From the NCBI GenBank assembly GCA_948567375.1, contig OX419760.1:12958001-13022000 (forward strand): a stretch of DNA of 64,000 bases. The letters run 5' to 3'. The stretch's first letter is position 1. Each line of letters opens with the position of its first letter. The DNA is from Lunularia cruciata. Taxonomy: Eukaryota > Streptophyta > Marchantiopsida > Lunulariales > Lunulariaceae. The notes beneath the pieces were generated by a model. That model saw only the letters and a program-made list of their open reading frames with translations, did not search any database and was not told where the DNA came from. The position numbers were made by a program, and so were the translations under genes. Of this stretch, positions 6,113 through 53,347 are shown piece after piece.

Positions 6113-6167
6113 CTAAATCTTCATATAGTCAGGGGAAAAAAATGCACAAAGAGAGGAAGTGATGTAT

Positions 6168-6757
6168 TGTGAGCCGGCTTGTCTTTCACTCAGGATGAAC
6201 CTCTAATGACTATTAAGGTAGCGCACCATAGACTAAGAAGATAAGGAACCTCAACTTCATCACACTCCTCCAAGACTAGAACTCCAAGGCTCAAGACATT
6301 ACTCACTAGAGACTCAATGAGAGAGAGATAGTTGCAAATGAAAGGATGATGAGTACCTCCTCATCCCTAGTTTATATACTTGTGAAATATTTATGCACCA
6401 AAGTTACTAAGTATTGGAGTAACTCAAGTTACTAGACTAAAAGTCAAATAAAGTCTAAAGTCTAAAGCAATATCCATACTCTTGGGAATATTCCCCTAAG
6501 CATGTGGTCTTATCTTGACCCAACCACTAAGTCAAGAATTCCTTCACATGGGCTATCCTTGGACTATATAAGAATCTAAAGCAAAGGCTTGTGGGTCCAA
6601 GAGTTCTCAATTCTTTCTTCAAAGCCAAACACTTAGGAATAAGACCAAGTCAATACACTAGAATCCAAAATAGTGGTGCTTAGCTTTTCTGTTTCCTCTA
6701 AAGTAAGGACCCCTCTATCTTAACTATGACTAACTTTAGCTAATCATGACTAATGTA
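6168..6757 (-). mobile_element. S-family solo LTR, copy 1 (minus strand, 5'-truncated)
   Basis: The reverse complement aligns through its length with the complete 690 bp copies at 45042 and 59492. It includes the 3' terminus GCCGGCTCACA (here TGTGAGCCGGC at 6168). It lacks about the first 100 bases of the LTR, where similarity stops near 6757. It lies in inverted orientation to copy 2, 580 bases away. Confidence 0.8.
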
Positions 6758-7029
6758 ACACCATCATGTTTCTCTAGGCCTGCTTATAATAGGCTATCAA
6801 CTAAATTACCTAAATTAACTTAATATAGGCACCAGTTCAGAATTAATCTAAGCAATATACACATTTAATAAAGATTGAGGCCAATAAAAAAGAATTAGAA
6901 ATCCTTTTGGTGTAATAATATGTAATTAATAATAGATCTATAAATTGTAATACAAGATGCAAGGTTGCTCCCTAGTTATCATAATCCTCAAGTTAATCTA
7001 AAGTGCTTTGCTTGCAGCACACCTTCATG

Positions 7030-7310
7030 TCCAAAGTTTGAAAGACTTTTTCAAAGGTGATCACCTTTCTCCCACCTCAAAATGGAGAAGTCAAACTCCA
7101 TTGTACTTGTGCTTAAAAATATAGTTGCAATACCACCACAAAACTTGACCAAGTTTAGAAACCAAGCACCAAGTAAGGTCCATGCATTGTCAAGGGATTT
7201 CTTTTGGTTACAGCCATCAATGCCCTCTTGCAACATAGGCTCATTGTGGTAAGCTCTAAGAAAAGCTTTATGCTCATTGGCAATGATATCTATTTGTGTG
7301 GCTAAGTATC
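7030..7310 (-). pseudogene. Possible hAT transposase C-terminal fragment
   Basis: The minus-strand frame contains LGAWFLNLVKFCGGIAT followed by STSTMEFDFSILRWEKG. This loosely resembles the hAT dimerisation region, where a W-x-x-x-G...P-x-L-x-x-x-A block precedes S(S/A)xxER-(N/D)-(W/F)S. The match is by eye only. The fragment sits in the spacer between the two inverted S LTRs. Confidence 0.25.
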
Positions 7311-7334
7311 AACACTACAAGCAAAAGGTTTGTC

Positions 7335-7839
7335 TATTTTGGATTCTAGTGTATTAACTTGGTATTATTCCTAGGTGTTTGGCTTTGAGGAAAGAGTTGA
7401 GAATTCTTGGGCCCGCAAGCCTTTTTTTTTGGATTCTTCTATAGTCCAAAGATAGCCCATGTGAAGGAATCCTTGACTTAGTGGTTGGGTCAAGATAAGA
7501 TCACATGCTAGGGGAATATGCCCATGTGAATGGATATTCCTTTCTACTTTTTGACTTTACTTGAATTTTAGTCTAGTAACTTGAGTTACTACAATAATTA
7601 GTAACTTTGGTGCGTAACTATTTCACAAGTATATAAACAAGGGGTGAGGAGGTACTCATCATCCTTTCATTTGCAACTATCTTTCTCATTGAGTTCTCTA
7701 GTGAGAAATGTCTTGAGTCTTGGAGTGTTAGCCTTGGAGGAGTATGATGGAGTTGGGGTTTCTTGCCTTCTTAGTCCATGGTGTGGTACCATAATAGCCA
7801 TCAGAGGTTCATCCTGAGTGAGAGACAGGCCGGCTCACA
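7335..7839 (+). mobile_element. S-family solo LTR, copy 2 (5'-truncated)
   Basis: Aligns with the last 500 bases of the S LTR, from the CTATTTTGGATTCTAGTG block to the terminal GCCGGCTCACA ending at 7839. The first 190 bases are missing. Together with copy 1 it makes a long inverted repeat. Confidence 0.8.
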
Positions 7840-7869
7840 ACCTAGACTACATCCTCCATGTGGCCCAAG

Positions 7870-8150
7870 ATGTGTGTCATGTCATTTGTAGAGTTGTACC
7901 TAGATTGCTTAAACTATGGAGTAGCAATGTTGGTAGTCAGAGGTAATTTGGCAATTACTCATAGACTACTTGTTGATTGCTAGATTTCCAATTTGGCATA
8001 TTGACTACATGGTGGGGCCCGTTGTCACTTGCACCATTTGCACCGTCAAGTGTGCCATCGATGAGACCATTAGGGTTGGAGATCTAGGTCAAAATCAAAG
8101 GTATGCTTTGGAAGTGTAGCTCCAAAGAGCTCACTTCTCTGATGTTGAGC
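7870..8150 (+). repeat. LTR fragment of the element A family
   Basis: Similar along its length to the element A LTRs. Shared blocks include the TTGGCAATTACTCATAGACT type block, CATGGTGGGGCCC, GACCATTAGGGTT and GAGCTCACTTCT with GATGTTGAGC. It lacks about the first 90 bases of the LTR and stops after GATGTTGAGC. Confidence 0.65.
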
Positions 8151-8358
8151 TATAATATCAAGAGCTAGCCATATGATCTAGATGTGAAATTTGGTTTGGT
8201 AACATCTAGAATGATGTTATACATGATGGTCAAAATAGATCAGATATAAGTATCACCAAAAGAGTACTTCTACTAATAGAGCAAAAACCAAATGTTGAGT
8301 GTATAATCTATGTTTTCTATCTTCTCTTGTCCTCGGAGTATTACAATGGTATCAGAGC
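8151..8358 (+). mobile_element. End of a different LTR plus initiator-Met primer-binding site
   Basis: TGGTATCAGAGC at 8347-8358 is the standard primer-binding site complementary to the 3' end of plant initiator methionine tRNA, used by most copia and many chromovirus elements. The preceding 200 bases end in TATTACA, as expected for an LTR 3' end. They share blocks with 48590-48740, including CACCAAAAGAGTACTTC. This is the only clear sign of that element here. Confidence 0.6.
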
Positions 8359-9035
8359 GAGTATCTTAGTCCAAGAGAGTGGATCACTCCTCTTGGAAGA
8401 GCACAAACTACTGAAATTGAGTAATTTGAGGTGGAGAACATAAAGTAATTGCTAGACTTAGGAAGGACTTTAGAGAGCGGACGAGATGGATGCACCGGGA
8501 GGACAATTTCCAGCACCTAGCTTTCCATTCCCAAATCCATTCCACATCAAGGTTATGTATATTCAGCGTGAGCAAATGAGGGTATTGCTAGTTTATCACT
8601 TTGGCACAGAATTCATGGATAAGGTGATGAACTCACCAACCCTGGTGATTCTACCTGTGGTGATATATGACAGAGAGTGGGATTTGACAATCTACATTCT
8701 ATTACAATAATATGGATGTGAATGTCCCAAATCTTCTCACTTTCAACACTCAAGTAGAAATTCCTTATGTAGTAAGATAGAAAGTGATGCTTAGAGATTT
8801 TGTGGTTAGGAATTTTGGCGAGGAGTATTATCAACAAGTGATAGCTTTTGAGGTCCCAATGGTAGTTCTGATAGTTCATGCGCCTTCCAGAGTGATCATG
8901 TTGATTCTGTATTGAAGTAGACATTAGTAATTGAGTGTTGTAGGAACCATGGATCCGCAATTGCAAAAGCTGGTGCAAGGAATGCACGTGATGTTGAATG
9001 AAGTTTGAGAGATTAAGATGACCATGGAGACATTA
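8359..9035 (+). other. Leader and start of an unidentified retroelement ORF, decayed
   Basis: Directly behind the initiator-Met primer site. An ATG at 8486 opens a 74-residue frame beginning MDAPGGQFPAPSFPFPNPF, in the position of a gag start. It stops at 8710 and continues only as broken frames. I recognise no domain. The stretch ends where the element A LTR begins. Confidence 0.35.
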
Positions 9036-9479
9036 CATCTGGATTGCTCAAACACTAGAGTTGCAGTGATAGTAGTTAGAGATATTTTAGCAGCCACTCA
9101 TAGACTACTTTCCTATGATCAAATTTTGTGTTTGGGGTATTGACTTCATGGTGGGGCCCACCATCACTTTGCACCATTCACACCATTGGGTATGCCATCA
9201 GCGGGACTATTAGGGTTTTAGACCTAGCTCAACTCCATAGGTATACTTTCAAAGTGCAACTCCATAGAGCTCACTTCTTTGATGTTGAGCCTTTGAGTTC
9301 CTGGCTATGGTGGACAGAGGCCGACGAGTGTCATCTAGATTCTCTTAGCTAGAGTGGGTGTGGCTTGACTGTAATCAATGCCCAATTGTTGGTAGTTTAT
9401 AGAGTGACAGATCAAGTATTGATCTGAGTTAAGTTTATTCAAGTGGTGTAAATGAATTGATTACATCAAAGATGTGAGA
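9036..9479 (+). repeat. Element A 5' LTR (lacks its first ~110 bases)
   Basis: Aligns with the 3' LTR at 18381-18897 from the block CATCTGGATTGCT onward. Shared landmarks are CATGGTGGGGCCCACC, CACTTCTTTGATGTTGAGCC and GTAATCAATGC. It ends GATTGATTACA at 9479. The initial TGTGGACTTTAG part found in the 3' LTR is absent. No standard primer-binding site is obvious after 9479. Confidence 0.75.
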
Positions 9480-10920
9480 TCAAGGAGAAATCGGGTGCAG
9501 GGACTACAAAGAGTTGGTGGTTTCTCCAAGCTCAGTGGTTCATTGATAGCTCGATCCAAGTTCAATTTTCCCCTAGTGTGTAGAAGCTAGTTGATTGATG
9601 CAAATTTGGCAATGAGGTAGATTGTTTGCAAAAGTGTTGGCCAAATTTTGAGCAAAGAGAAGCAATTTTTGAGCAATGGTTGTGATTTTGAGCTAAGGAA
9701 GTGAAAGTAAGACCAACTTGTTACGAGTTGGGCTCAAAAAGTGAAATTGAAGGTGGAGTTGGGAACCTATCCTCATGAATTTGTGATTTGGAAAACCAGT
9801 CATTTCAATTTCTGAGTGGAGAGTTAGCAGAGGATTTGGCGTAAGCCAACTTTAGGGTTTACATCAGATTTTAGCTAGAGTTTATGTCAGATTTTGGTCA
9901 GATTTGGAGGAGTTTCAAAGTGGTAGATTTTTGGCCAGATTTGGAGGAGTTTTGCCAATTTAGAAGGGGTTCAAAGTGGCAAGAAGAAAGGCATCATTTG
10001 GCTGAATTTTGGCATTTTGAGGCTTAGGGCTATGAGATGCTACAAAGGGCCAACAAGCTAGCTTGTTGGCATGAGGCTAGCTAGTTTAGAGTAGATCTTG
10101 ATCATTGTTTGGCAAAATCTGCCCATCTTGCTAATTATGCACAACAGGGTCTGACTCCTAGATCCCTAGTTCCTAGACTGGTGCCCTAGCTAATTGATCC
10201 ACCCTCACTTGTTGTCCTAGTGACTGGCACACTATTATCTATACACTTATAGCTTTTGCTAAGAGAGGCAGCTTGATCCCATTCTTGGTAATCTTGGTAG
10301 CTTAGGACGTAGATATGAACTCCTATTATGTTAAATGCCAAATGGTAGCAAACTCAGTCTCTTGTTGCTTTATGAGATGTAGTTTTTGTTTAGATTTCTT
10401 GTGATTGGATCCCCTCCATTCTCTACTTCTTATTTGTGCACCATGTTTGTGTGAGGTGCCTTGAATTTAGAGTGTTGGTGCTTTGGTGTGCTCTTGGTCA
10501 TGAGGCTGGAGTGATGACCAGTCAGACTACCTTTGTTTCTCTCTGGTCAGGCAAGAAGTGATGACCTGCAGACCGTGAGAGTACATGTTGTGATGGCAGG
10601 TTACAGGTCACCCTTTCTCCTAATGTAGTTGTCTCAATTAGAGTTACATTAGTGGGTAGTGTTCTGTTGGTGTTGGCACTTGGTGATGCTTAGTTGGTGT
10701 TGGTTCTTGGTGGAGTACTTGCGGTTGTGGTTGGTGGTTTGTGGTTACTTTGTCATGACAGAGTTCTTTGGGGATTCCAAAGGAGATAGCCTTGCAATAT
10801 GTAGTGGGTTTACTCAGTGGCGCTTGGTATCAACATGTATCTTAGGTCCCAATGAGGGAGGAGATTGACTCTGAGTTGGATTTTGACATATGAGCTGATT
10901 CAATTGAGATTGTACTTGGC
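9480..10920 (+). other. Element A untranslated leader
   Basis: No ORF of substance. The stretch is collinear with 50495-51960 in element B; both contain the block CTTATTTGTGCACCATGTTT, at 10427 and 51533. This shows that it is part of the element and not host DNA. Confidence 0.6.
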
Positions 10921-12340
10921 ATGTCCGCACAGTTGTTACGGGACATGGACAAGATTTATGGAGCCTCCAAAGGCCCTAGGCATTACTTTGGTATAATGGG
11001 TACCATTGAGTTGGATGACTTCATCCAAGAATTTGATAGTTGGTGTGATTTGCAGCAGATACGGAACCTGACTTTGTTCACACCTTTCATGGCATGGAAG
11101 AGATTATTTCAGCACTTGGAAGGTCCATCAATGGACAACTATCATGAGTTCAAGAAAGCTCACTTGGAGGAGATTGAGTTATAGAGATAGTATTGATCTC
11201 TGAACTATGTCTCCATCACTTCAAGCTTGGTTGCCAGGGGTAGATCGGCTATATCCCACAAGTTCTAGCTGAAGTAGCATTGGTGGAGGTCATGGAGGTA
11301 CACTAGTTGGAGATAGTGCTACTAAGCGTAGAGCTACCGCTACAAGAGGTGGTGTAGTATCGGGGTTTAACCCATGGTGGAGTTCTTCTAGTGTTTGAGG
11401 CAAAACTACCACAGAGTGCAGACTGACAAGTTGAGGAGCTTGCATGAGGTCTCGTGGAAGGCTGGGGACAGCCTACGCAAGGCATACATTTGCATGAGGC
11501 GGTTGATGAGTTTCACTCAAGGAGTTACTGAGGCCCAAGCAGTCCAATTTTGGTATGTGATACTAGACAAGGAATTGCAAAGTAGAGTTCGTGATGTTAT
11601 GTTGTTATAGACTACTTTGCCTACTTTGGCGGTTGTCTTTGGTTTGGCTGAGCATATTGAGCTCAACATGGTGGAGGAGAGAGTGGTGACATTTGGATTT
11701 GGTAGGGAGATGTCATCTACAGTTGTGACTTCTTCTAGAGTGTAGCAGAGTGCACCATGCCTAGTTGGTTTTTGATGACAAGGTGGACAGCCCGGATCCT
11801 ATGGAGCGAGTGGAGGGCCTAGTGGAGCTAGACCCTTACCTTCATTTTTAGATCAATAGCAGCCAATGAGTGGTGGTGTTGCTTGTTGGACCTCACCATA
11901 GGAGAGAGTGTACTCAAGGCAGCAAAACTAATAACTCTGGTGCATCACAACCAACATAAAGACAATGTGAGCATTGTCAGAAATATAGTCACTTTAGTGA
12001 CCGATGCTTTGACCTACAATTGCAGTTACGGAGTGGTAAGGTTGCTATGGTAGGTAGTAGAGGAGCTCCAGTTCATGGAGGACAAGGTGGTAGAGGTGGT
12101 GGTAGAGAATCTACACCTAGTAGGGGTGCAGTACCTACCCTTACTTCTAATATAGCTATGGCTACTCGGATTGAGCAATTGGAGCAGAGATTGGCTAGTT
12201 TGGCCATTGTTCAGAGGAGATCAGATTTGAGTGCAAAGACTTCCACCTCATATGTTGGTGATAGAGATGCTTTGGACTTCATGTGCGGAGCAAGCCGGAT
12301 AGATGCATTTGCAATAGTGACTAGGAGTGTAGTATGTGCT
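10921..12340 (+). pseudogene. Element A gag, broken
   Basis: The first block (10921-11184) encodes 87 residues including GTIELDDFIQEFDSW, a gag capsid-like helix region. The second block (11395-11610) contains SFTQGVTEAQAVQFWYVILD and ELQSRVRDV. A CCHC zinc knuckle of exact spacing (C-x2-C-x4-H-x4-C: CEHCQKYSHFSDRC) is encoded at 11966-12007, in the frame of the following block (12020-12481). That block begins with an RG/GG-rich nucleic-acid-binding tail (GAPVHGGQGGRGGGR). Stops and frameshifts separate the blocks. The same three blocks occur in element B. Confidence 0.75.
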
Positions 12341-12869
12341 CTAGAGCCTAGAGGAGCATCAATGGAGTTGGACTATAAAGAGGAGAGGTTGGGAGACAAG
12401 TCAAACTTCCCCAGTCTTTCATGCTCTTTGAGGCCCTACAAACATCATCTATGGCTCTTAGATGTCCTAGTGCACGTGTAGTAGGTAGTGATGGGGTGCA
12501 TGATAGACTACTTGCTACTACACAAATATAGTCTACATGATGTTGGGAGTGGCTCAACTGATTATGCGCTATCTTTTATTTTCAACCAGTGACATGTGTA
12601 CATTGGGAGTTGACAAGCCCTAGAGTTTAGATTGGTTGCCATGTTTTGTGAGAGTAGGGATGATATGGTTCCTACTACTAGAGTAGAGGTGGTTGATAGT
12701 AGAGTTGACCTGGTTGAGGAGCATGGGATTTGCTCAGCGACCAATGGTTTATGGCAGGCAACAATGGCTAGATTGGAGGAGTTGCTACCTAGAACGGCCT
12801 TTGAGAGAGCGTAGTTCATACTTGGTGTTATCCTATTGGATAATTAGAGGGGGATTTTCCATTTGGTGG

Positions 12870-13190
12870 GACCTTTAGGGAAGGTTTATACACCACAGAG
12901 AGTCTTATTAGACTCTGGTGCACAACCTCTTATGTTGGGGAAGACTGCAATTATCGGTCTAGGGTTATGGAAGATCAATGTGGAGAGGTGTCCATTTCAG
13001 ATCCAAACATCTCTATGAGGTGGTTTGACATAGTACATCACATGTGGAGAGCTATTTGTTCAGATTTAGCTTGGTCATCCGATTGATAGCTTGGTGGTGA
13101 GAGCTCATGCTTTTATGACAATAGTTGAGTCATATGATGTGCTAGTCGGTGGAGTAGTGCTTGATCCCATGGGTTTCAATATTGACTATT
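12870..13190 (+). pseudogene. Element A retropepsin-like protease, broken
   Basis: The active-site motif VLLDSGAQPLML (catalytic Asp codon 12911-12913) is followed by GLGLWKINV and, after a stop, AHAFMTIVESYDVLVGGVVL. This is the usual second half of clan AA proteases (x-x-F-x-V-x-x-x-Y-D-x-L-x-G). One frame runs through with two internal stops. It lies between gag and the methyltransferase domain. Confidence 0.7.
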
Positions 13191-13498
13191 GAGAGGAGAC
13201 AACCTCCTATAGACCAGGTTGGCAGTCAAGTGAGGGATGAGTATGTCGCCTACCAATACGCTTCAGTAGTGGCAGTCTTGGCTCACTACAATCCGGGACC
13301 ATGACAACATCAGTTTCAGCTTTCAATGGTGCAGTTACTTGGCATGGTGACTTATTAGAGGGGAACGCCCATGCAAAGGATACTCCAATACCAAAGGAGA
13401 TCACTTGGATTTTGCGTACGAGTGGGATTGTTCCATCCAACTTGGATGTCCCACTGTGGAGTTCAAAAGAGACATTGCAATAACATGCAGATTAGTTA

Positions 13499-14575
13499 GT
13501 GCAACATGCTTGGAGTGGAGCCTTCATACCACTGGGAGATGAGTGTGAGGATGAGCCTCTAGAGTCAATTATCTTGACACCTATGGATACCACACTCATT
13601 GCTTTGCAATATCCAGTAGAGGAAGTATGTCTATTGGAGTTGTCTAGTGGGATTAGCACCGGACTAGCTATGGTCCTACAAGCATGTATACAAGTATAGA
13701 AGCACTTGTATGTGGAGAGAGATGAGACTACTAGGTGGGTCTCTCTACATCATGTGTCACACTTGGCTTATCATTATCTTGAGTTATTACCATTGTCAAT
13801 AGTCAAGGTTTACCAGAAGGCCTTACCAGCAGATATATACTCATTGGGGATGCATGATCTAGAGAGACATGGGCTTGTTCATTTGATGATTTTAGGATGG
13901 CCATGTCAAGGACATACATGTACTAGCTGGAGGTTTGGGTCTTCAAGATCCCTATTCTGGTGTGTTTTGGGAGATGTTATGGATACTGCAACATCTCCAA
14001 GTTCATCAGTTTGTTTCTCTAGCTTACATTTTGGAGAATGTCCCTTTGATGGATGATTCTCGCACCCGGGTGGTGTTGAGTATACATCATGTCCATTCTT
14101 GGATGGGACCTATTGTTTTGTTAGATGTAGCTAGAGTGAGATCACGGGCTGATGGGGATCATCATCTTCATCTTTGGTGGATGAACCTCTTACCTAGAGA
14201 GGTTTTATAGCATGCTTATGATGGGATTCAACAACTAGACCACATCATTGTTGATGACATCTTAGATATTGGGCGCCAGTCTTAGATAGTGGTAGTGGTT
14301 GATAGGTCACCTATGGCACTGGTGAACCTAGTTGGACAGCCTAGAGCCGCTTTTCCCATACTTATGAGTTTCTAGGCTCTCATGCTTTTCAAGAGGAAGA
14401 TCCTAGACTGGTTTGGGACTCATAGTTACAATAGTTGGTGGAGCCCAACACCAATGAGAGAAAGAAAGTGATGGGTTTTTGCACTGGTATTATGTTGTTC
14501 CAACAATGTCAAAGGCATCCAGGCATCAAGTGTTAGTTCAAGCTATGGACCTGAACTATTTGACCTAGATTGTGA
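13499..14575 (+). pseudogene. C5-cytosine DNA methyltransferase domain inside element A, broken
   Basis: Ordered C5-MTase motifs are readable. Motif I (AdoMet binding) is LLELSSGISTGLA at about 13631-13670. Motif IV is GWPCQGHT, with the catalytic Cys codon at 13904-13906. Motif VI is ILENVP, with ENV at 14034-14042. An R-x-R motif VIII-like segment, RVRSRADG, lies near 14133. A motif IX-X-like end contains VMGFCTGI near 14467 and VLVQAMDLNYLT near 14530-14565. Family role: transfer of a methyl group from AdoMet to C5 of cytosine through a covalent Cys intermediate. The domain lies between protease and RT. It is dead here: a TAG lies at 13697, the frame changes between 13909 and 13935, and there are stops near motif X. 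Element-borne DNMTs were reported, as I remember, in charophyte gypsy and dinoflagellate elements. Confidence 0.8.
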
Positions 14576-15285
14576 GCCTTGGCTTGGCAGAGTAGTGTAG
14601 GATGCACTTGATAGGCATTACCACTTAGACACTTGTGAGCCCTATGCCTATCAAGATGATTCAGGCACATGTTGGGGGCGATGGACCAAGTGGACAAGGT
14701 ACTCTTGGGACACAACCAGTGGCTACTTAGGAGAGTGGTCTACTTGGAGTCCATCCATGTGAGCATTTTCTACTTGGATTACACCCTTGGTCTACTTGGG
14801 ATGTAGCTAGAGGTCGTATGGAGCTTGCAGCCAAAGTAGAGAGATTTTTTCACACAAAGGTTAGGACCTCTAGTGCTTGGGAGCATGGCTCCCAAGAGCC
14901 CAATGTAGTAGCCAGTCAGCATGTCTTCCACTCCTACTACAATTGCAAAGGATACTTGGGAGCTAGATCTTGGACCCAAGCTTACAAGGGAGGAAAGATA
15001 GAGAGTTTGGAGGTACTTGAGGAGCTACACAAGTTATTTTGCCTTTAGTATGAAGGATTTGGGTGCTCTAAAAGGACTTGGTATTTGGATTGAGTTGACT
15101 AGCAATACACCAATTTTTTGACGTCTTTATCAATATAGTGATATGGAGAGGACATTGATTCAGAGTTGGAGTAGAGACCTTTATGAGGCTAGGTTGGTGG
15201 AGAGTTTACATGGAGAGTATGCATCAGTGACAGTGATGCCAGCCAAGAAGGATTATGCATGGAAACTACATAGATGGGCGGATGT
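14576..15285 (+). other. Element A linker between methyltransferase and RT
   Basis: Collinear polyprotein remnant with many stops. One 76-residue block starts at 14818 (MELAAKVERFFHTKV). No domain is recognised. In related polyproteins this would be the connector leading into the RT palm. Confidence 0.4.
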
Positions 15286-15835
15286 ATGGAGATTACGTCC
15301 TATCAACCAATAGTCTAGGGCTAATTGGTATGCCATGCCTATACCGGAGGAGGTCTTTGATGCAATTGGGCATGCAAAGGTCTTCAGTACTTTGGATCTT
15401 CGAGCAGGATATCATTAGTTGCTGATCAAGGAGGAAGATAAGTCCAAGACAATAGTTTGGGCTGTTGATCCTCATGGTAAGAATGTGTTATATCAATGGA
15501 GGTTCTTACCATTTGGGTTAAAGAACACTCTTGTTGAGTTCCAGAGGGTCATGGACATGATCTTAGCTAGATTGGATTTTGCTCAATGCTATATTGATGA
15601 CATTTTGGTTTATAGCTCTATGATGGAGGAGCATGAGAGACAATTGTTGGACGTGTTTGAGAGATTGAGATCTCATGGACTCAAATTACATCTTGTGAAG
15701 TGTAGGTTCCTCCATGAGCAGGTTGAGTATTTGGGTCACACTATCTACCTTGGAGGACTTGGTGTTCAGCAGACCAAGGTGGAGGCTATTGCACGCATTC
15801 TTGGCCTATAGATGTGAGCAGAGTGTGAGCATTCC
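15286..15835 (+). pseudogene. Element A reverse transcriptase, broken
   Basis: Reads WRLRPINQ, then AMPIPEEVFDAIGHAKVFST LDLRAGYH with a stop. A 130-residue open block follows (15419-15811) with FLPFGLKNTLVEFQRVMD, the catalytic YIDDILVY box, and HGLKLHLVKCRF and VEYLGHTI. These are RT motifs 3-7 of Ty3/gypsy in the right order. It is followed directly by RNase H. Confidence 0.85.
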
Positions 15836-15889
15836 TTGGGTTAGTGAACTTCTATTGCAGCTAAGTTAGAGGATTTAATGCCATTGTCA

Positions 15890-16410
15890 AGGCCTTGACA
15901 AAACTGACCAAGCTTACATTGGAGTGGTGTTGGGGAGATGAGCAGGAGAGAGCTTTTGTAGACCTCAAGGAAGAGGTTGACATCTGCTCCTATTTTGAGG
16001 AGACCAATCAGAGACTACCATTTTAGGTTCATTCTGATTGGAGTATGTTGGGACTTGGAGTAGTGCTCACCTATCATGATGATGAGGAGAAGGAGTTTGT
16101 GGTGGCCTATGCTAGTTGCTCCAACAATTCAGCAGAGGTGAAGTATAGTTCATATGAGAGAGAGAAAGTGCTTGGTAACAATTTGGGCAATGGCACATTA
16201 CCAATGTTACCTATTTGGTAACCTCTTTACTCTCATTAGTGATCATCAGCCACTAAAGTGGTTGATGGAGTCCGACAAGCATTCAAGGAAGCTTGCATGA
16301 TGGGCTCTGATTTTACCGAGTATGATTTCATGGTTATTTACAGACTTGGAGTGGTGAGCCGTGATGCAGATGGGTTGAGTAGAAACCCATGTCCTAGCAA
16401 GTAGGATCAG
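15890..16410 (+). pseudogene. Element A RNase H, broken
   Basis: The connection region ends ERAFVDLKEEV. HSDWSMLGLGVVLTY is the first catalytic Asp block, and AEVKYSSYEREKV holds the catalytic Glu. The end reads RDADGLSRNP, the typical A-D-x-L-S-R close of gypsy RNase H. At least three stops and one frame change are present. Confidence 0.75.
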
Positions 16411-16599
16411 ACTAGAGCACATTGGCATAGTGAGGTAGATGAGGAGATGGTGCCAAGTTGGCATGCGTCTACTTTTCTATGTATATTTTCTAAGACTTTG
16501 GTGGTATTGCTCTCAATGCATATAGAAGTTATTGAGGTCACAAATCCAGAGATTGGAGATAGTGGTATAGTTTAGCAAGACATTCATGATGATGTCTTA

Positions 16600-17480
16600 A
16601 TGATGGACTATCTTTGCATTGGTGTTGTAGGTAGCATAGTTGGGGCCAAGGAGAGAGACCATGTGTTTCAGCGAGGTAGGCGGTTCAGATTGGAGAGTAG
16701 ATACCTTTTGCGTGTATGGGAGGATGGTAGAGTGAGAGTAGTACCACTTCTATCTCAAAGACTACAATTGATCCGTCATGCTCATGAGGAGCTAGGGCAT
16801 TTTGGAGTAAACCATACATGTAGCTTGCTCCAGAGTCATTATTGGTGGCATGGTATGGAGATTGATGTACAATAATTTGTTGTTAGATGTGTGGTTTGGG
16901 ATCAAGTTAGAGCATCATTTAATGCTCCTATGCCACAATTGCACCCATTACCTATCATGGGATTGGGTTACCATTGGAGTCTGGACTTTTTTGGACCTTT
17001 ACCATTGACTGTGAGACATCATCGGTATATTTTGGTGATGGTAGAGCACTTCTCCAAGTGGATTGAGTTGGTGGCACTTCCGGACAAGTCCAATGAAAGG
17101 ATGGCTTATTCATTCCCAGATTGGGTTCTAGTCATTTTGGTGCACCAGCTGAGGTTTTGACTGATCAAGGTACATAGTTCTTGGGAGAGTTTCAAGTCTT
17201 ATGTAACAAGGCTTTGATTGATCATTGTACTACCTCCCAAGATCACCCTAAGGCAAATGGCTTAGCAGAGAGAGTGGTTCAGATGGTGAAGAGAGGATTG
17301 CAAAAGTATAGTTTGTAGAGAGGCTACTTGGGAGATTGAGATCTTCAGTTACCTTGGTTGGCCATGGGCTATCGGTTCAGTCAGCAAGCCTCCTTAGCAT
17401 CCTTCTCTCCTTACTTTCTACTCTATGGACAAGATCTAGATTTACCTGCAACCATTTGTTGAGATGCTATTATAGTTTTG
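16600..17480 (+). pseudogene. Element A integrase, broken
   Basis: The HHCC zinc region reads IRHAHEELGHFGVNHT, then HYWWHGM; the second Cys pair is partly lost (CVVW instead of CxxC). The DDE core follows: WSLDFFGPL near 16980, VLTDQGT near 17158 and ANGLAERVVQMVKRGL near 17250. LPWLAMGYRFS and SPYFLLYGQ complete the core end. Several stops interrupt the frame. Confidence 0.8.
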
Positions 17481-17559
17481 GACTTGGATGATCCAGATGT
17501 ATAGATGAGCACATGTTCTTAATGGGCAGAGATCTTTTGGAGAGTGATGCTAATGGCCT

Positions 17560-18030
17560 TTGAGAATTTGGTGATTTCTTAGAGATAGAGATAAAGATAC
17601 CTTATGCTATGCTACTATTCAAGGAGGAGGTTATAGACCCTTGATCCATCAATTTTATCCAAGGGGATATGTATATCTATAGCAGACAACACCGACAACA
17701 CTTGATGTTTCTACAAGGCCTACTATCTTGAGAGTGTGTGAGGTTTTGCCATCTAGAGCCCTTGTGTTGGAAGGATGTGATGGAGTTGTTTGAAAGGATC
17801 ATGTGCTCAATTGTATGTCATGCCACCTCCCAGACATTGATGGTACTATGGACCCAAGCTTGGCACTTGTATGTGCAGGCTTGAGGTGTATGTTATGTGG
17901 CTCTTCTGGTGGAGCTACTATTATGTTAGTGTGTGATAGCTATTTGAGAGGATGGCATGTGACATGTATGACTCCTCTCTTCATGGTGGTTCCTCAAGGA
18001 TAGTGGTTATGTCCTAGATGTACTTGACCT
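17560..18030 (+). pseudogene. PHD-type zinc finger at the C-terminus of element A pol, broken
   Basis: Directly after the integrase core a frame reads YRPLIHQFYPRGYVYL, then TLDVSTRPTILRVCEVLPS and ALVLEG (an SH3-like integrase C-terminal region). It then gives a C4HC3 array: CMLC (17887-17898), CDSY (17932-17943), GWHVTC and, after a stop, WLCPRC ending near 18027. Spacing is right for a PHD finger. The fourth ligand is Tyr here but Cys in the second copy (CDSC near 19420). PHD fingers read histone H3 tails, so a role in chromatin targeting of integration is inferred. TAG interrupts the finger before WLCPRC. Confidence 0.7.
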
Positions 18031-18307
18031 ATAGCTAGTTCATCCTTTATATGGTATAGATTGCAGATAAACGACTAATGATGGAGCTCGATAGCACCAG
18101 ACCTCTTGATCTTTGCCCATCATAGCTATTCGAGAGGATGGCATGTGATATGTATGACTCCTCTCTTCAAGGTGCTTTCTCAAGGATAGTGGTTATGTCC
18201 TAGATGTACTTGAATTATAGTTAGTTCATTTTTATATGGTATAGATTGCAGACATGCGACTAATGATGGGGCTCGAAAGCACCAAGCCTCTTGATCTTTG
18301 CCCATCA
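17936..18307 (+). repeat. Tandem 186 bp duplication of the PHD finger end
   Basis: Bases 17936-18121 and 18122-18307 are near-identical. Both contain GAGAGGATGGCATGTGA, CTCAAGGATAGTGGTTATG and CTCTTGATCTTTGCCCATCA. The duplication repeats the finger half from CDSY through WLCPRC and its downstream flank. It is absent from the copy at 19273-19660. Confidence 0.85.
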
Positions 18308-18364: not shown

Positions 18365-18897
18365 CCAGCTAGGGGGTAATTGTGGACTTTAGAGTCTATG
18401 TATGACTTATGTGTGAGTTATATGTCTATAGTGTATGAAGTTGACAGCGATGTATATATGCACCTCAATTGTCACGCCACTTGTAGTGTTTCATCTAGAT
18501 TGCTTGGACATTGGTGTTCCAATGATAGTAGTTAGAGGTATTTTAGCAATAACTCATAGATTACTTTCTAATGGTCAAATTTCATGTTTGGTGTACTGAC
18601 TTCATGGTGGGGCCCACCTTCACTTTGCACCATTCACACCATTGGATGTGTCGTCAATGGGACCATTAGGGTTTTAGACCTAGCTTGACTCTAGTGGTAT
18701 ACTTTTGAAGTGCAGCTCCAGAGAGCTCACTTCTTTGATGTTGAGCCTTTGAGTTCTTGGCTATGGTGGATAGAGCCCGGCGAGCATCACCTGGATTCTC
18801 TTAGCTAGAGTGCGTGTGGCTTGATTGTAATCAATGCACATTTTTTGGCAATTTATATAGTGATAAATCAAGTATTGATCTGAGTTGAGTTGATTAT
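18365..18897 (+). repeat. Element A polypurine tract and complete 3' LTR (517 bp)
   Basis: The purine-rich CTAGGGGGTAAT precedes the LTR start TGTGGACTTTAG at 18381. The LTR runs to 18897 (GAGTTGATTAT), where the next LTR copy begins at once with TGTGG. Length agrees with the second complete LTR at 19681-20195 (515 bp). Confidence 0.7.
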
Positions 18898-20300
18898 TGT
18901 GGCTTTTTAAGGTCTATGTATGACTTATGTGTGAGTTATATGTCTATAGTGTATGATGTTGACAACGATGTATGTTGTGTAGTGATGTATATACGCACAA
19001 CATTTGGATGTATGGGTGAGTGCATGTTCTTAATGTGTAGAGATCTTTTGGAAAGCGATGCCAATGACCTTTAAGAATTTAGCAATATCTTAGCATAGGG
19101 ATATCTTACGCTATTTGAGGAGGAGGTTATAGATCCTTGATATGCTGGTTTCATCCAAGTGATTATGGATATGTACAGTAAACAAAATCTATTATTCTTG
19201 ATATGCCTACTACTTGTATTATTTTGAGAGTGCATAAGATTTTGCTTCTCAAAGTACTCATGTTGGAAGGATATGATGTTGTTGTTTAGAAGGATCATGT
19301 TGCAATTCTACGTTATGCCACAAATGGACATAATGGACCCAAGCTTGGTAATTGGATGTGTAGGCTTGCAGTATATGCTATATGGTTCTACTAGTAGAGC
19401 TACTACTATGTTGGTGTGTGATAGTTGTTCAAGAGAATGGCATATGGTATGTTTTACTCCTCTCTTCACAATGGTTCCTCAAGGGCATTGTTATTTCCTT
19501 GATATACTTGATACCTTAGCTAGTTCACTCCTTATATAGAATAGATTGTAGATATGTGACTAATGATGGGGCTTGATAGCACTTGGCCTCTTGACCTTTG
19601 CCTACCATAAGGCATATCACGTACTTGGAATATAAAGCTTTTGGAGTATGAAGGACCTAATTGCCAACTAGGGGACCAATTGTTGCACTTTGGAGTTTAT
19701 GTGTAACTTCTTATATGAGTTGTGCTTCTATAAGGTATGATGTTTACAACAATGTATGTTGTGTAGCAATGTACATTTTCATGACAACTATCATGATAAT
19801 TGCAGTGCCTAATCAAGTTTGCTAGGACCATGGAGTGAGTATCTTTGCAGTCATAGTTTATCAATAGTTCTCATGAGTTACTTGGTGGCAATTATTTACT
19901 ATGTTAGGTTTTTTTATTGCACAATTAAAGGTACTATTTTCACCATCAATAGTATTAGATGTGTTGTTAGGGTTAGATTCCTTGGCTCCCCAAGGAGAGG
20001 TATAATTAAAGTGCAGCTCAAGAGAGCTCACTTCTTCTATGTTGAGCCTTTGAGCTCTTGTTTATGGTGGATATACGTTGGAAAGTGTAACTTAGATTCT
20101 CTAAGCTAGAGTGGCTATGGCTTGATGGTGTAATCAAAGCATGTTAATAAAGACTATTGAATATTGAGTTCTGACCATCTGATCATTTGATTAATTGTGG
20201 CACTTTGGAGTTTTTATGTGACTTATTATATGAGTTGTTTTTTATAATGTATAATGTTGATAGCAATATATGTTTCATAGTGATGTATGTTTGCACCACA
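18898..20300 (+). mobile_element. Tandem 1.3 kb LTR-PHD-LTR mini-unit plus a further LTR start
   Basis: 18898-19007 repeats the first 110 bases of the LTR. It joins directly to sequence matching element A from 17494 on (GAGTGCATGTTCTTAATG type block): integrase C-terminus, PHD finger at about 19360-19470, a polypurine-like tract (CTAGGGGACCAAT) and a complete LTR, 19681-20195. Another LTR start, 20196-20300, follows immediately and then breaks off. The unit lacks gag, protease, methyltransferase, RT, RNase H and the integrase core. Period between equivalent LTR starts is 1298-1300 bases. Confidence 0.7.
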
Positions 20301-32040: not shown

Positions 32041-32312
32041 TCAAGGAAGGTCGGGTTCAGAGAATCTATGCGGTTATGATGAAGTTGGTTTTCCAGCTCA
32101 AGTTCCCTGAGAAGTACTGCTATCGACTGTAGATGCTCAGAATATTGTCTATGTAATGTCAACTACTTTACTACTCTGCCTTCTATTTCACTCCATTTTA
32201 GCCCTTTAGATCGGAAGATCCACGCGTGACTGCCTGTTCCAGTGTTAGCTGTGCTTCTGGCTGAAGCTGATGACGGATAAAAGGCACCAATGTCCCTCTG
32301 ACAGAATAGAGC

Positions 32313-34091
32313 ATGATCTATAGAACGGACCTAGTGTCTACTGAGATGAAGAATTCTCCGAAATATGGCAGAAGATCCTCAACTCCGAAGTCGGGTCCAC
32401 AGAACTGCTGTTATAGGAGCAAGTTTGTGATCATCTTGGGTCTAGTATTGACAGTGGTGATCGTAGTGTTTTTGAACAAAGCATCATCGTATGCAGATGG
32501 AGGGCTGAAATCCTTAACAATCGCGAGTGAAAAGTCAGGCCAGACTTTGTCGAGGTTGAACTATACTAACATATTGGTGGAACTAGGAGAATCCACCAAT
32601 TACACAAGTACTTTACAGACTCTGCTACAATTTAATGGCACTCTAGCGTGCCACAATCTATCCACCAACTCCACTAGATTGGAGAACCTCCCTAAACCGG
32701 TGAAAGGGAGAGTAATGCTCAGAGCTAGCCACAGACACCTCCTAACTCTGGTGGCCTATGCCGTGGATGGCAAAAGGCGGTGCGCGGAGGGAGACTACTT
32801 CGAGGTGGACTTCCACAACGAGCACTATCGGTCGAGACTCCCAACAGTCGACTATGGAAATGGAACCTATGGGCTCGAGCTTCTCGTCCCGTCGCGTTGG
32901 GCCGGGGTTTTCAATCTAGAAGTTACCCTCTTGTTCACTAACTGGCATGGAATGGATTCACGCTGCAAGAGCTGTTCAGAGCCTCTTGTAGTTATAGAAC
33001 AGGAGCTCCACTTGTTTGTGCCATCGGATGATCACTTCTTTGCCTCCGAGCTTGACAAAGAGAGCAAGAAGCAGAAGCCTCTAACGAACTTAACCCGCTG
33101 CAGCCCAGAGGATTTCAATCGTGCAACCTGGTCCGGAAGATGGACCCGCAGCTGGTTCAACGATATCTGCCACCCAGATGAGGAGAAAAGGTACAAGTGT
33201 CTGCCAAAGGAGCATTACGAGTGCTAGGAGCCATGGTGCTTCGGCTCTGTTGGACAGCTGGAAAGCAATGGGTGGCAGTATTCTGCGCATTGCAGTTTCA
33301 AGATCTTCGAGCGGGATGAAGCTTGGAAGTGTCTAAATAGGAAGTGGTGGTTGATCTGGGGAGACTCCAACTTCCAGGATACTATCCGAAACATCGTGCT
33401 CTTTATTTTAGAGTGGAAGCTGCCAACCAAGAGGACCATCAACGAATACACTCTCGACCGCAATTACGAGAGAATGTTCATCAACCAACACAGTTTGGAG
33501 GAAGGGTTCAAAGTCAGCATGATTTTTAATGGTAACAACAATGAATTTGCCAATGGCGAGGGTCTTAACACTCTCAGGCACAAGGATCACCAAGAGAGAA
33601 TCAAATCCCATTTTGATGGACCAAATTGGGTGCCAGACACTATAATCATGAACTCAGGGTTGCATGATGGAGCCGGAGGTCGCAGCCTGAATTCCTATAT
33701 TGAAAGTGCGGACTTCACCGTGGACTGGTGGAAAAGCTTTTACAGGAATATCACGGTACGACGAAAGCCCAAACTCATTTGGCGCTCCACAGTGGCTCCA
33801 GCAGGTAGTGCAAGGCAAGCTCCAGGTAATCCCAATAAACTGGAGATGTTCAATCTGATCATGGTTGAAAAACTGCTTCAAGTTCGGGATGAACTGCCCG
33901 TCATATTTGTAGACACCTTTGATCTCACATTTCCTTGGCACTACACTCAAGAATATAGCGATGGAGGTCACTACGGCTGACCACCAGGGATGAGAGTGGG
34001 CTGGCCAGGAAGTCCTGCCAAGGCACATTATTATTTTGTGGATCTGATGAACGCCCACATTCTATATGTCCAGCGTAACAGTGCTCACTAG
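32313..34091 (+). pseudogene. NXPE/PC-esterase-like type II membrane protein, two in-frame stops
   Basis: One frame from ATG 32313 to TAG 34089-34091 spans 592 sense-length codons without introns. It is interrupted only by TAG at 33225-33227 and TGA at 33978-33980. Residues about 38-57 (FVIILGLVLTVVIVVFL) form a signal anchor after a basic N-terminus. A beta-sandwich-like region follows (GVFNLEVTLLFTNWHG). The esterase half starts with WWLIWGDSNFQD, a GDS nucleophile block, and ends with SDGGHYG, the D-x-x-H pair of the PC-esterase fold. Length fits NXPE proteins. Family members are Golgi or secretory glycan-modifying esterases or their relatives; the substrate here is unknown. Without readthrough the first stop removes the whole esterase domain and the second removes the last 37 codons, including none of the catalytic residues. 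It could be a fresh pseudogene or one allele. Confidence 0.75.
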
Positions 34092-45731: not shown

Positions 45732-45735
45732 GTTC

Positions 45736-50084: not shown

Positions 50085-53000
50085 ATGCTAGAGTGATAAT
50101 CTTGGTGGTCAAAGTTATATTAGTAGTTGCTCAAAGACTACTTAGCAATTTTGTAAATTTTGTATTATGGCTATTGAATATATTTTAACTTGTACCATTC
50201 ATACCATGAGATGTGCCGTCAATGGCACTGTTAGAGTTGAGGATCTAGGTTGAATAGAGGGGTATACCTTCAAAGTGTAGCTCTAGAGAGCTCATTTCTT
50301 TGATGTTGAGCCTTCAAAGTGTCTGGCTATGGTAGGCAGAAGTTGGTGAACATCACTTTGAGTCTCTTAGCTAGAGTAGATGTGGTTTGACTATAATCAA
50401 TGCCCAATTTTTTATAGGTTGTTGAGTGGAGGATCAAGTTCAGATCAAATTTGAATGTGATTCAAGTGGAAGAGTGAACTGATTACACCAGAGAAGTGAG
50501 AGTCAAGAGGAAATCAGATGCAAGAATGGAGAGCATTGGTGGTATCTCCAAGCTTGGCAAATTGTTGTTACTTTTGATCACAATCTTGGATTTCCTTGAG
50601 ATGATCATATGAGGAATCATTATGTGATTTGCTATAGATTTGATAGTGAGGCAAATGATGTGCAAAAGCACTGCCAAAATTTGGTGAAGATTGAGGTCAA
50701 ATTGAGACTAGAAATTCAATTTTGTTGATCAATGAGACAGATCTGAGAGTGAGAGGTCAAATTCACAATTGAGACTAGTGATTTGCAAAATTGGAAGTGG
50801 ATACAAGAACCCATCCCCTCAAATCAGGGATTTGGAGGTCCTCATTTACTCAATTTGGCTTGATTTAATAGTGATAGTCAGTAAGTAGGATTTGGAGGTC
50901 AAGAAATAGTAGTGGAGTTCTAACAATTTGTTAGAGGTGCCTAGATTTAGAGGTTGAGTTGATGGAGGTCATCTAGAGTTTGAGGTTACCCAAGTTGAGT
51001 CAAATTTGGTGGTGGCTTGTCCTAGCTAATGCTCCAATTGGTAGAGGTTAACCTAATTTGGAGAGGGTTGATTTGGCAAGAAGAAGACCTCATTTGGCAT
51101 TAAGAGGTTTCAAGGCATTGGATTGTGGGCTAGAGAGGCTATGAAGGCCTAGAAAGGCCAGCAAGACAACTTGTTGGTGTAAGGCTAGCCAGATTAGGTG
51201 AGGTTTTGGTAGTTGTTTGGCAAAATTTGCTCACCTTTCAAGATTGTATGCAATAAGTAGATCCAAGATCTTTGGTTCCTAAACTAGTGCCTTAGCCAAT
51301 TAGTCCACCCTTAGTAGTTATCCTAGTGATTGGTGAGTTGATACATATACTCATGTAGCTTTAGCTAGGAAAGACCTTTTGATCACATCCTTGGTGAACT
51401 TGGTAGTGTAAGAATATATAGACATTCCTATTAGGTCAAATGCCAAATGGTGGTTGAGTTAGTCTGATTTTGATTCATGAGATGGAGGGTTATTGTTTCA
51501 ATTTCTTGTGATTGGACCTCCTCCATTCTTTGCTTCTTATTTGTGCACCATGTTTGTGTGTGGGGCCTTAATATTCAGATGTTGATACTCTAGTGTGCTC
51601 TTGGTAGTGAGGTTAGAGTGATGACCAATTAGACTGGCTATGTTTCTCTCTAGTGAAGTAGGAAATGATGGTATGCATATAGATCATGAGAGCATATGTC
51701 ATGATGGAAGGTTACAAGTTGCACTTTCTTCTTGTGTATTTATCATAGTTAGAGTTATATTAGTGGGTGGTTTTTTGTGGTAGTACTTGGTGGTTACACT
51801 TCCACATTAGGGTAGATTGTCATGATTGAGTTATTTAAGGATTCTATAGGATATTTTGCTACAATGCATAGTGAGTTTACATAGAGTGGTACTTGATATC
51901 AAGTCCCAATAATGGAAGAGATTGATTCCAATTTTGAGTTTGACACGGGAGTTGTTCAATTGAAAGTGCACTTGGTGTATCCATACTATTTTTGTAGGAT
52001 ATAGAAAAAATTTATTTGGACACCAAGTCTATTTTGGTATAATGTGTACTATTGAGTTGTATGACTTCATCTAAGAGTTTGATAGTTGGTATGATCTACA
52101 ATAGATGCGAAACCCAATTTTGTTCACACCCTTCATGGGATAGAAGAGATTGTTCCAACACTTGGAAGGTCCACTAATGGATGACTACCATGAGTTCAAG
52201 AGAGCATACTTGGAGGAGATTAAGCTATAGAGATAATATTGGTCTCCAAATTACATCTCTATCACTTTAAGCTCAATTTCTAGGGAGTAGATTGACAATA
52301 CTCACAAATTCTAGATCTAGTAGCATTGGTGTATCTAATAAAGGTGCACTAATTGGAGATAGTGCTACTACAAGTAGAGGTACTACTATAGGAAGTGGTT
52401 CAATATTTGGATTAAATCCTATGATATAGTTGTTCCAATGTTTGAGGTAGAACTACCAAGGAGTTTGGATTGACAAGCTTAGGAGCTTGCAAGAATTCCA
52501 ATGAAAGGCTGGAGAGAGCCTATGCAAGCAAGGCATACATTAGCATGAGACAATTGATCATTTTCACTCAAGGAGTTAATAAGGCCTAGGCAATCAAATT
52601 TTGGTATGGGATCTCAAACAAGGAGTTGCAATGGAGAGTCCGTGATGCTATGTTGTAACAGTTTACCTCATCTACTTTGGTGATGGTTTTTAGTTTGGCT
52701 AAGCTCATTAAGCTCAACATGGTGGAGAAGAGAGTGATATCTAGATTTGCTAAGAAGATCACATCCACAACTATTACTTCTTGTAGAATGTAGCAAAGTG
52801 CACCACACCGTGTTGGCCTTTAAGGGCATAATGGATAGCCTAAATCTTGTGGAGCAAGTGGAGCCTAGTGCAACTAGACCTTTACCTTCATTTTTGGGTT
52901 AGCAACAATTAGTGAGTGGAGGTGTTGCTTGTTGGACTTGTGGTGGACCTCACCACAAGAGAGAGTGCACTAAAGGCAATAAACATGATACCTCTAATAC

Positions 53001-53347
53001 ATCAAAGCCAACATAAAGACAATGTGACCATTGCTATAGATTTGGTCACTCTAGTGACCAATGCTTTGAACTTCACTTAGAATTATGGAGTTGTAAGGTT
53101 GCTATGGCAAGTGGTAGAGGAGCTCCAAATCATGGAGGACAAGGTGGTGGTAGAGGACTTACACTTGGTAGATGCCAATATTTACCCTTGCTTTTGATAA
53201 AGCCATGGCTAATGGATTGAAAATTAGAGCAAAGATTTGCTAGCATGGCCATAGCTCAAAGGAATCAAATTCAAGTGTTGATGTTTTGACCTCTTATGTT
53301 GGTGATAGAGATGTCTTGGACTTTATCTGTGGAGTAGCATAGGTAGA
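50085..53347 (+). mobile_element. Element B: second copy of the A family, split by element C
   Basis: LTR 50085-50494 (also lacking its first ~110 bases) ends GAACTGATTACA. Leader and gag are collinear with element A 9480-12300. Gag blocks include FTPFMG, RLFQHLEGPLMDDYHEFK and a CCHC knuckle CDHCYRFGHSSDQC near 53026-53067, followed by the G-rich tail GAPNHGGQGGGRGL. It breaks at 53347 where element C begins. The remainder, including any protease, methyltransferase and pol, should lie beyond 64000. Confidence 0.75.

What the first reader, a model, noticed from the sequence alone, without database searches (positions are those of the whole stretch)
13499..14575. Gypsy retrotransposon carrying a C5-cytosine DNA methyltransferase between protease and RT
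Motif I, the PCQ catalytic motif, the ENV motif and motif IX-X-like ends occur in the right order inside the polyprotein of a Ty3/gypsy element. DNMT capture by retrotransposons is rare; as I remember it was reported for charophyte gypsy elements and dinoflagellate elements. Such a domain could let the element methylate its own cDNA or new copies. This copy is broken, but the family (elements A and B) suggests that active relatives may exist in the genome.
Basis: partly seen in the sequence, partly recalled or inferred. Interest (0 to 1): 0.88.

Follow-up and report, generated by a model that had tools for sequence, protein, structure and literature searches.

The report
Retrotransposon with methyltransferase and PHD finger
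A decayed plant jumping gene carries its own DNA-methylating enzyme and, missed at first reading, a zinc finger of a kind that usually binds histones; relatives in mosses and liverworts carry the same enzyme, and one liverwort relative the same finger.

Summary
Window 13574-14592 is a frameshifted, stop-ridden C5-cytosine methyltransferase (DNMT) domain between protease and RT of a Ty3/gypsy element (gag from 10945, integrase to about 17800). Pfam is undecided on this copy (PF00145, E 0.017), but 30 database proteins match at E 2.5e-16 to 1.5e-116; the 7 with an organism name are all bryophytes, several as gag-protease-DNMT or DNMT-RT-RNaseH models. By profile the domain is nearest to DNMT3; a bacterial or phage origin is not excluded. 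It recurs in a fragment at 19315-19485 and in one Marchantia gene model that also holds DNMT sequence. Element B (50.2-53.3 kb) shows LTR-like and gag sequence only. A DNMT-bearing gypsy element is published from the alga Klebsormidium; the land-plant family and the DNMT plus integrase-PHD pairing did not show in my paper searches. Inferred mechanism (about 0.35): the enzyme methylates new copies and the finger guides insertion by reading histone H3. This copy is inactive; relatives with intact DNMT motifs exist. The host genome could not be searched.

The parts
9033..9439 (+). part of the 5' LTR of element A (the LTR probably runs on to about 10820)
   Evidence: 85.5% identical over 407 bp to 18489-18895; outer limits inferred by eye
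10825..10836 (+). primer-binding-site-like sequence
   Evidence: exact TGGTATCA found here; the initiator-Met consensus is recalled, and the site departs from it downstream
10945..12480 (+). gag with a zinc knuckle near 11963-12000
   Evidence: tblastn with Marchantia P0092: 10945-11892 at 49.7%, further piece from 11990; knuckle read by eye in the ORF 11960-12481, which has no Pfam match
12626..13240 (+). aspartic protease region (LLDSGAQPLMLGK near 12905, by eye)
   Evidence: tblastn with P0093 and P0035 from 12626; P0035 has an Asp_protease_2 match below its cut-off
13574..14592 (+). C5-cytosine DNA methyltransferase domain, frameshifted and with stops
14957..15808 (+). reverse transcriptase
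   Evidence: PF00078 E 1.8e-21 on 15419-15808; tblastn with P0093 from 14957
15805..16437 (+). RNase H
   Evidence: tblastn with P0093 and P0105
16651..17800 (+). integrase (zinc-binding, core, C-terminal part)
   Evidence: PF17921 E 5.2e-14; rve 21.3 bits, below its cut-off of 32.6; tblastn with P0101, P0105 and P0064
17827..18045 (+). PHD finger (with a short lead) at the C-terminus, behind the integrase; one zinc ligand replaced and one stop in this copy, by eye
   Evidence: PF00628 E 1.1e-6, 29 bits, cut-off 24; 67% identical to the P0064 PHD stretch over 66 residues, 17827-18024
18489..18895 (+). part of the 3' LTR of element A, apparently cut off by the next fragment
19007..19485 (+). 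fragment of another copy: integrase C-terminal part and degenerate PHD finger
   Evidence: tblastn with P0064; PHD stretch 19315-19485 at 55%; 19007-19609 is 74% identical in DNA to 17496-18124
50190..53334 (+). element B: truncated relative with LTR-like and gag sequence, no DNMT
   Evidence: 51055-53334 is 72.7% identical in DNA to 9957-12290 and 50190-50554 74.1% to 9169-9532; gag pieces 52012-53250; no DNMT match there

Best explanation
Shown: element A is a decayed copy of a plant Ty3/gypsy family laid out gag - protease - DNMT - RT - RNase H - integrase - PHD finger. The DNMT is shared by moss and liverwort relatives; the PHD finger by the window copy, a second fragment in the window and one Marchantia gene model. 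By profile the DNMT is most like the DNMT3 class. Inferred (about 0.35): the DNMT, made as part of Pol, adds CG methylation de novo to the element's cDNA or to the fresh insertion, and the PHD finger on the integrase end ties the integration complex to nucleosomes by the histone H3 tail, as chromodomains do in chromoviruses (recalled). Together they would place new copies in, or turn them into, silent chromatin, where they do the host little harm. The confidence given is for identity and layout, not for the mechanism.
For: 30 relatives of the read-through domain at E 2.5e-16 or better, 22 of the 30 with a precomputed PF00145; the 7 with an organism name are bryophytes. Marchantia P0044 and P0093 hold DNMT, RT and RNase H in one model. 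Marchantia P0064 holds the tail of the protease region, part of the DNMT, the integrase end and a PHD finger (PF00628 4.4e-9) in one model. Family profile against solved structures: DNMT3A 5.7e-10, DNMT3B 7.2e-7, 4onj 'DNA methyltransferase' (recalled as tobacco DRM) 2.0e-4, tRNA C38 / DNMT2 type 0.006, HaeIII 0.077, HhaI 0.43, DRM2 0.55. Of 104 fetched proteins (P0031 left out) 78 match the DNMT model, 19 of the 78 span it, 8 of the 19 keep all five motif patterns; 7 of the proteins built the model, 5 of them among the 8. Solved PHD fingers nearest to that of P0064 include CHD4, PHF12, ubi-d4, ATXR5, KDM5, PHF21A and UHRF1 (60 of 76 matches shown); that many of these bind H3 unmethylated at K4 is recalled. 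CpG observed/expected is 0.19 in element A and 0.12 in the DNMT, against 0.33 in another gypsy region, 0.62 in a gene-like stretch and 0.31 in the window.
Against: No activity is tested. KnitGypsy-Dnmt3 showed no methylation in yeast, which its authors call inconclusive. Low CpG and TAG-rich stops can equally come from host silencing, and B, with no DNMT preserved, has lost even more CpG (0.04). The PHD evidence in relatives rests on one gene model (1 of 26 scanned with Pfam), a deletion derivative with no PF00145 match of its own; its DNMT part is known by blastp only. Only one host DNMT3 (human) was in the trees. 11 of the 19 model-spanning relatives lack at least one motif pattern, which may reflect decayed copies or pattern strictness.
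Confidence: 0.85

Rival explanations
1. The domain is a bacterial or phage-type C5 methyltransferase captured by the element, not a eukaryotic DNMT3.
For: Motif IV reads PCQ, where human DNMT3A has PCN; that PCQ is usual in bacterial enzymes is recalled. NCBIfam TIGR00675 (dcm) matches 7 of 7 relatives at 25-47 bits over roughly motifs IV-VI, below its cut-off of 100.65. Phage enzyme L001 scores 49.7 bits against 56.5 for DNMT3A. AU tests reject none of three alternative groupings (p 0.095, 0.143, 0.177).
Against: DNMT3A matches in three stretches, including the AHRxR...W-NL stretch and the C-terminal end, and outranks the bacterial enzymes among solved structures. The 28 phage enzymes were found through the shared pattern AGWPCQG, so the comparison favoured them.
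Confidence: 0.15
2. The DNMT is kept for something other than methylating DNA: RNA binding or methylation, or structure.
For: Motif wording departs from DNMT3A; the yeast test of the Klebsormidium enzyme gave no methylation.
Against: All five motif patterns are kept in 8 of 19 model-spanning relatives; DNMT2-type RNA enzymes score far lower (0.006) than DNMT3A.
Confidence: 0.25
3. The DNMT stretch is a chance fusion or later insertion into this one copy.
For: Only one copy in the window carries it.
Against: The gag/protease - DNMT or DNMT - RT order occurs in Marchantia, Sphagnum and Calypogeia proteins and in metagenome proteins.
Confidence: 0.01
4. The PHD finger is a zinc-binding extension of the integrase with no chromatin role.
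For: No binding test exists; only three instances were seen.
Against: It matches chromatin-reading PHD fingers, best whole-chain E 1.5e-14 for CHD4 with two fingers summed, and sits where chromoviruses carry a chromodomain (recalled).
Confidence: 0.25

Closest known systems
KnitGypsy-Dnmt3 of the charophyte Klebsormidium nitens (de Mendoza et al. 2018, PMC5890265; abstract, part 1 of 7 of the text, sections 9-11 and passages seen)
   Same: A Ty3/gypsy LTR element with a Dnmt3-related DNMT in the Pol reading frame.
   Different: Reported in an alga; a look-up of PHD, Marchantia, Physcomitrella, moss and liverwort in its main text found none. Its domain order is in a figure I could not see; no Klebsormidium protein was named among my hits, so common descent is untested.
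SymbioDIRS-Dnmt3 and SymbioLINE-Dnmt of dinoflagellates (same paper)
   Same: Retroelements that carry a C5 DNMT; the DIRS enzymes methylate CG de novo in yeast.
   Different: DIRS and LINE classes, different integration machinery, independent capture according to the authors.
Metagenome proteins P0104 and P0105 (unnamed organism)
   Same: RT and RNase H of gypsy type with a related DNMT (33-37% identity).
   Different: DNMT lies behind RNase H (before the integrase zinc-binding domain in P0105), not between protease and RT.
Chromoviruses (chromodomain-integrase Ty3/gypsy elements; recalled)
   Same: A histone-tail-reading type of module at the integrase C-terminus.
   Different: PHD finger instead of chromodomain; a DNMT besides.
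CR1-like non-LTR elements with PHD domain (Kapitonov and Jurka 2003; title seen only in a reference list)
   Same: A retroelement with a PHD domain.
   Different: Non-LTR class, so no retroviral-type integrase (recalled).

Membership tests
Ty3/gypsy LTR retrotransposon | gag, protease, RT, RNase H, integrase in that order | tested here: met
   Order on the + strand by Pfam and tblastn, with the DNMT between protease and RT.
Ty3/gypsy LTR retrotransposon | flanking LTRs, primer-binding site, target-site duplication | tested here: inconclusive
   Repeat pair 9033-9439 / 18489-18895 at 85.5% and a partial PBS at 10825; outer ends not fixed, target-site duplication not looked for.
C5-cytosine DNA methyltransferase (PF00145) | significant profile match | tested here: met
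   Not significant on this copy (E 0.017); above cut-off in relatives such as P0041 (1.5e-13) and P0028 (4.1e-9).
C5-cytosine DNA methyltransferase (PF00145) | motifs I, IV (PCQ), VI (ENV), VIII, X | tested here: met
   8 of 19 model-spanning relatives match all five patterns. In the window copy IV and VI are intact, I and VIII altered; X is altered and read in another frame.
DNMT3 class | closer to DNMT3 than to other classes | tested here: inconclusive
   Best class among solved structures; 56.5 bits against at most 49.7 for 28 phage enzymes; one host DNMT3 only in the trees, AU tests undecided.
KnitGypsy-Dnmt3 lineage | common descent of element and DNMT | not testable with these tools
   No Klebsormidium protein was named among the hits.
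PHD finger (PF00628) | C4HC3 zinc ligands and profile match | tested here: met
   Above cut-off (24) in window copy A (29 bits) and P0064 (36.7 bits); below it in the fragment at 19.4 kb (21.3 bits). Copy A has one ligand replaced, by eye.
PHD finger (PF00628) | histone H3 binding | not testable with these tools
   Inferred from the nearest solved fingers only.

The most novel reading that the evidence does not exclude
Land plants host an old family of retrotransposons that carry a writer-and-reader kit of their own: a DNMT3-like methylase in Pol and an H3-reading PHD finger on the integrase. The pairing would echo the DNMT3 plus ADD finger of animal DNMT3 (recalled), split over one polyprotein, and would let each new copy choose and mark its own silent chromatin.
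Probability: 0.3. Interest if true: 0.82.

Novelty: new variant of a known kind. Interest (0 to 1): 0.62.

Why it matters
In the paper I could read, DNMT capture by a gypsy element is described from one charophyte alga. Here the same kind of element appears in mosses and liverworts with a repeated place for the enzyme, and with a second chromatin module in the window copy and in a Marchantia model. Marchantia is a laboratory plant with good genetics (recalled), so the question why a transposon would carry the host's kind of silencing enzyme could be tested directly: which sites the element chooses, and whether its copies gain CG methylation without the host's enzymes.

Tried and rejected
Pfam on the window copy alone was not decisive. 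phmmer of the read-through domain against solved structures gave nothing; the family profile was needed. A scan of viral contigs returned 28 loci at 27-53% identity in the best segment; I used their methyltransferase ORFs as outgroup and did not examine these loci for retroelement genes. Rfam and tRNA scans of the window were empty. Pfam on five other open frames named only the RT at 61321-62004, so the host is not identified; 'land plant' is an inference from the relatives. Trees: retro-DNMTs plus P0103 form one side of a branch at 93/89 and 87/80, not strong; whether the protease-DNMT order is one clade is undecided (p 0.095). The RT of P0105 is 39% and 41% identical to those of P0093 and P0044 and 32% to the other gypsy RT of the window; but P0044 is itself 35% identical to that other RT, over a shorter stretch, so this is a hint, not proof, of common descent of the two DNMT-bearing element types. 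Considered and dropped: reading the CpG loss as proof of self-methylation (element B has lost more). Homology overlaps that, and both lists include the query.

Unreliable rows: the WINDOW_copy row and the window motif X test used a script file whose last piece was read in the wrong frame; another frame shows a motif-X-like end, so 'X False' should not be used. The 73 stops come from overlapping alignments, some in different frames, so part of them may be misplaced. Dropped before counts: P0031 (bacterial-type, E 0.53) from the 105 proteins.

Full report
What is there. DNMT domains from seven relatives, run by tblastn at E up to 10, give 28 pieces inside 13300-14900; the best query (E 1.65e-92) covers 13574-14592 in four pieces at 52-72% identity. 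The best of 23 pieces elsewhere has E 0.068; the reversed domains give none inside and 0.73 at best elsewhere. The domain is read in more than one frame; the pieces read between 13496 and 14600 hold 7 in-frame stops, all TAG. The PCQ and ENV motifs are intact; motifs I and VIII are altered. This copy cannot make an enzyme.

Is it a methyltransferase? The protein search settles it: 31 proteins at E up to 1, of which 30 lie between 2.5e-16 and 1.5e-116 at 47-61% identity; 22 of these 30 carry a precomputed PF00145. Seven of the 30 bear an organism name, and all seven are bryophytes: three Sphagnum, two Marchantia, one Riccia, one Calypogeia. A second and a third search, with relatives as queries, found longer ones (70 and 29 proteins, overlapping; only the 8000 candidates sharing most words were scored). 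Every organism name shown there is Marchantia, Sphagnum or Calypogeia; no Klebsormidium protein was named.

The element. Relatives placed on the window by tblastn give, in order on the + strand: gag 10945-12480, protease region from 12626, DNMT 13574-14592, RT 14957-15808, RNase H 15805-16437, integrase 16651-17800 (DNMT limits). Pfam confirms RT (1.8e-21) and the integrase zinc-binding domain (5.2e-14); the integrase core is below cut-off, and the gag ORF has no match. A repeat pair 9033-9439 / 18489-18895, 85.5% identical, fits LTRs 9456 bp apart, and a partial primer-binding site lies at 10825. The outer LTR ends were not fixed and no target-site duplication was looked for.

Behind the integrase, at 17827-18045, lies a PHD finger: PF00628, E 1.1e-6, 29 bits against a cut-off of 24. 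A fragment of another copy at 19007-19485 repeats integrase end and finger, degenerate. The Marchantia model P0064 (Mp_7g09570) contains the tail of the protease region, part of the DNMT (by blastp; no PF00145 match), the integrase end and the same finger (PF00628, 4.4e-9). It is a deletion derivative: it shows that the modules belong to one family rather than showing a complete element. Of 26 relatives scanned with Pfam (2, 10, 6, 8), 5 show RT or RNase H together with PF00145 (P0044, P0093, P0096, P0104, P0105) and 1 shows PHD (P0064); most of the others end within or shortly behind the DNMT, so they cannot tell about PHD.

Element B. The stretch 51055-53334 matches 9957-12290 at 72.7%; its only coding matches are to gag, and no DNMT match lies there. 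The window therefore holds one DNMT-bearing copy, not two.

Which methyltransferase? A profile of 19 relatives (A1) against solved structures ranks DNMT3A (5.7e-10), DNMT3B (7.2e-7), 4onj 'DNA methyltransferase' (recalled as tobacco DRM; 2.0e-4), a tRNA C38 / DNMT2-type enzyme (0.006), HaeIII (0.077), HhaI (0.43) and DRM2 (0.55). A profile of seven domains scores human DNMT3A at 56.5 bits over three stretches and the best of 28 phage enzymes at 49.7. This favours DNMT3, but by a small margin: motif IV is PCQ where DNMT3A has PCN, only one host DNMT3 was in the trees, and none of three AU tests excluded its alternative (p 0.095, 0.143, 0.177). Retro-DNMTs together with P0103 (no RT match) form one group at 93/89 or 87/80, not strongly supported; the window copy falls among the bryophyte-type elements at 98/99 and 99/99 (same calls, with the wrong-frame tail noted under Tried and rejected). 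Motif patterns: 78 of 104 fetched proteins match the domain profile (7 of them built it), 19 of the 78 span it, 8 of the 19 keep all five patterns.

A second architecture. P0104 and P0105, without organism names, carry the DNMT behind RNase H, in P0105 before the integrase zinc-binding domain, instead of between protease and RT. Their RT is 38-41% identical to that of the bryophyte relatives P0093 and P0044 and 30-32% to another gypsy RT in the window; P0044 itself is 35% identical to the latter over a shorter stretch. Either the domain moved within one lineage or it was captured more than once; this is open.

Decay. CpG observed/expected is 0.19 in element A, 0.12 in the DNMT, 0.04 in element B, 0.33 in another gypsy region, 0.62 in a gene-like stretch, 0.31 in the whole window. 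In the stretches of element A that align with relatives, 73 stops were counted: 44 TAG, 22 TGA, 7 TAA. This looks like the trace of heavy cytosine methylation (CG, and perhaps CHG) followed by deamination. It fits host silencing as well as self-methylation, and element B shows it more strongly without a preserved DNMT.

How it probably works. Inferred, about 0.35: de novo methylation of cDNA or of the new insertion by the Pol-borne enzyme, and choice of insertion site by the integrase PHD finger. Solved fingers nearest to that of P0064 include CHD4, PHF12, ubi-d4, ATXR5, KDM5, PHF21A and UHRF1; that several of these bind H3 unmethylated at K4 is recalled, not tested here.

What is known. PMC5890265 (abstract, part 1 of 7, sections 9, 10, 11 and passages seen) reports DNMTs in Symbiodinium DIRS and LINE elements and in a gypsy element of Klebsormidium, purifying selection on the latter, and de novo CG methylation by the DIRS enzymes in yeast; a look-up in its main text found no PHD, Marchantia, Physcomitrella, moss or liverwort. 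PMC12344493 (section 5 and passages seen) mentions retrotransposon DNMT3s as reported earlier for streptophytes and dinoflagellates, naming Copia and DIRS. Term look-ups (passages only) in PMC6317226, PMC10508981, PMC12885004 and PMC9985172 found no methyltransferase; PHD was asked in the first three and not found. In PMC7602945 and PMC3286476 (passages only) PHD finger occurs only as a host gene name; in PMC5408684 PHD occurs only in a reference title. PMC6453930 (passages only) showed nothing on transposon-borne DNMT under the terms asked. The listings of nine paper searches (in one search only 15 of 54 papers were listed) showed no title or abstract start that reports a land-plant DNMT-bearing gypsy family or DNMT with an integrase PHD finger. 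Most subscription journals are not in that library, so this is not proof of absence.

Limits. The host genome could not be searched, no structure was predicted (not accepted), and no DNA of relatives was at hand for Ka/Ks.

Noticed in passing
window 7875-8990: LTR-like stretch (75% to LTR sequence of element A) followed by TGGTATCAGAGC at 8347 and a gag-like start at about 8486 (by eye): perhaps remains of another LTR element that element A landed next to or in.
   Followed up: partly
window 58000-64000: A second, different gypsy element: RT 61321-62004 (PF00078 3.1e-24), RNase H and integrase matches to 63382, an ORF at 58019-58513 that looks gag-like by eye but has no Pfam match; less CpG-depleted (0.33) than elements A and B.
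   Followed up: partly
window 6161-7840, 45041-45738, 59491-60183: An inverted-repeat element (arms 87-93% complementary) with further copies in the window, perhaps foldback or MITE-like.
   Followed up: no
window 32310-33980: Two adjacent open frames of 305 and 250 aa with higher CpG (0.62), gene-like, with no Pfam match at E 0.01.
   Followed up: partly
P0103: A 943-aa protein without organism name, with a related DNMT and no RT match; it groups with the RT-RNaseH-DNMT proteins in the tree, perhaps a truncated or domesticated relative.
   Followed up: partly
P0104, P0105: Polyproteins with the DNMT behind RNase H instead of before RT: a second architecture of DNMT-bearing elements.
   Followed up: partly
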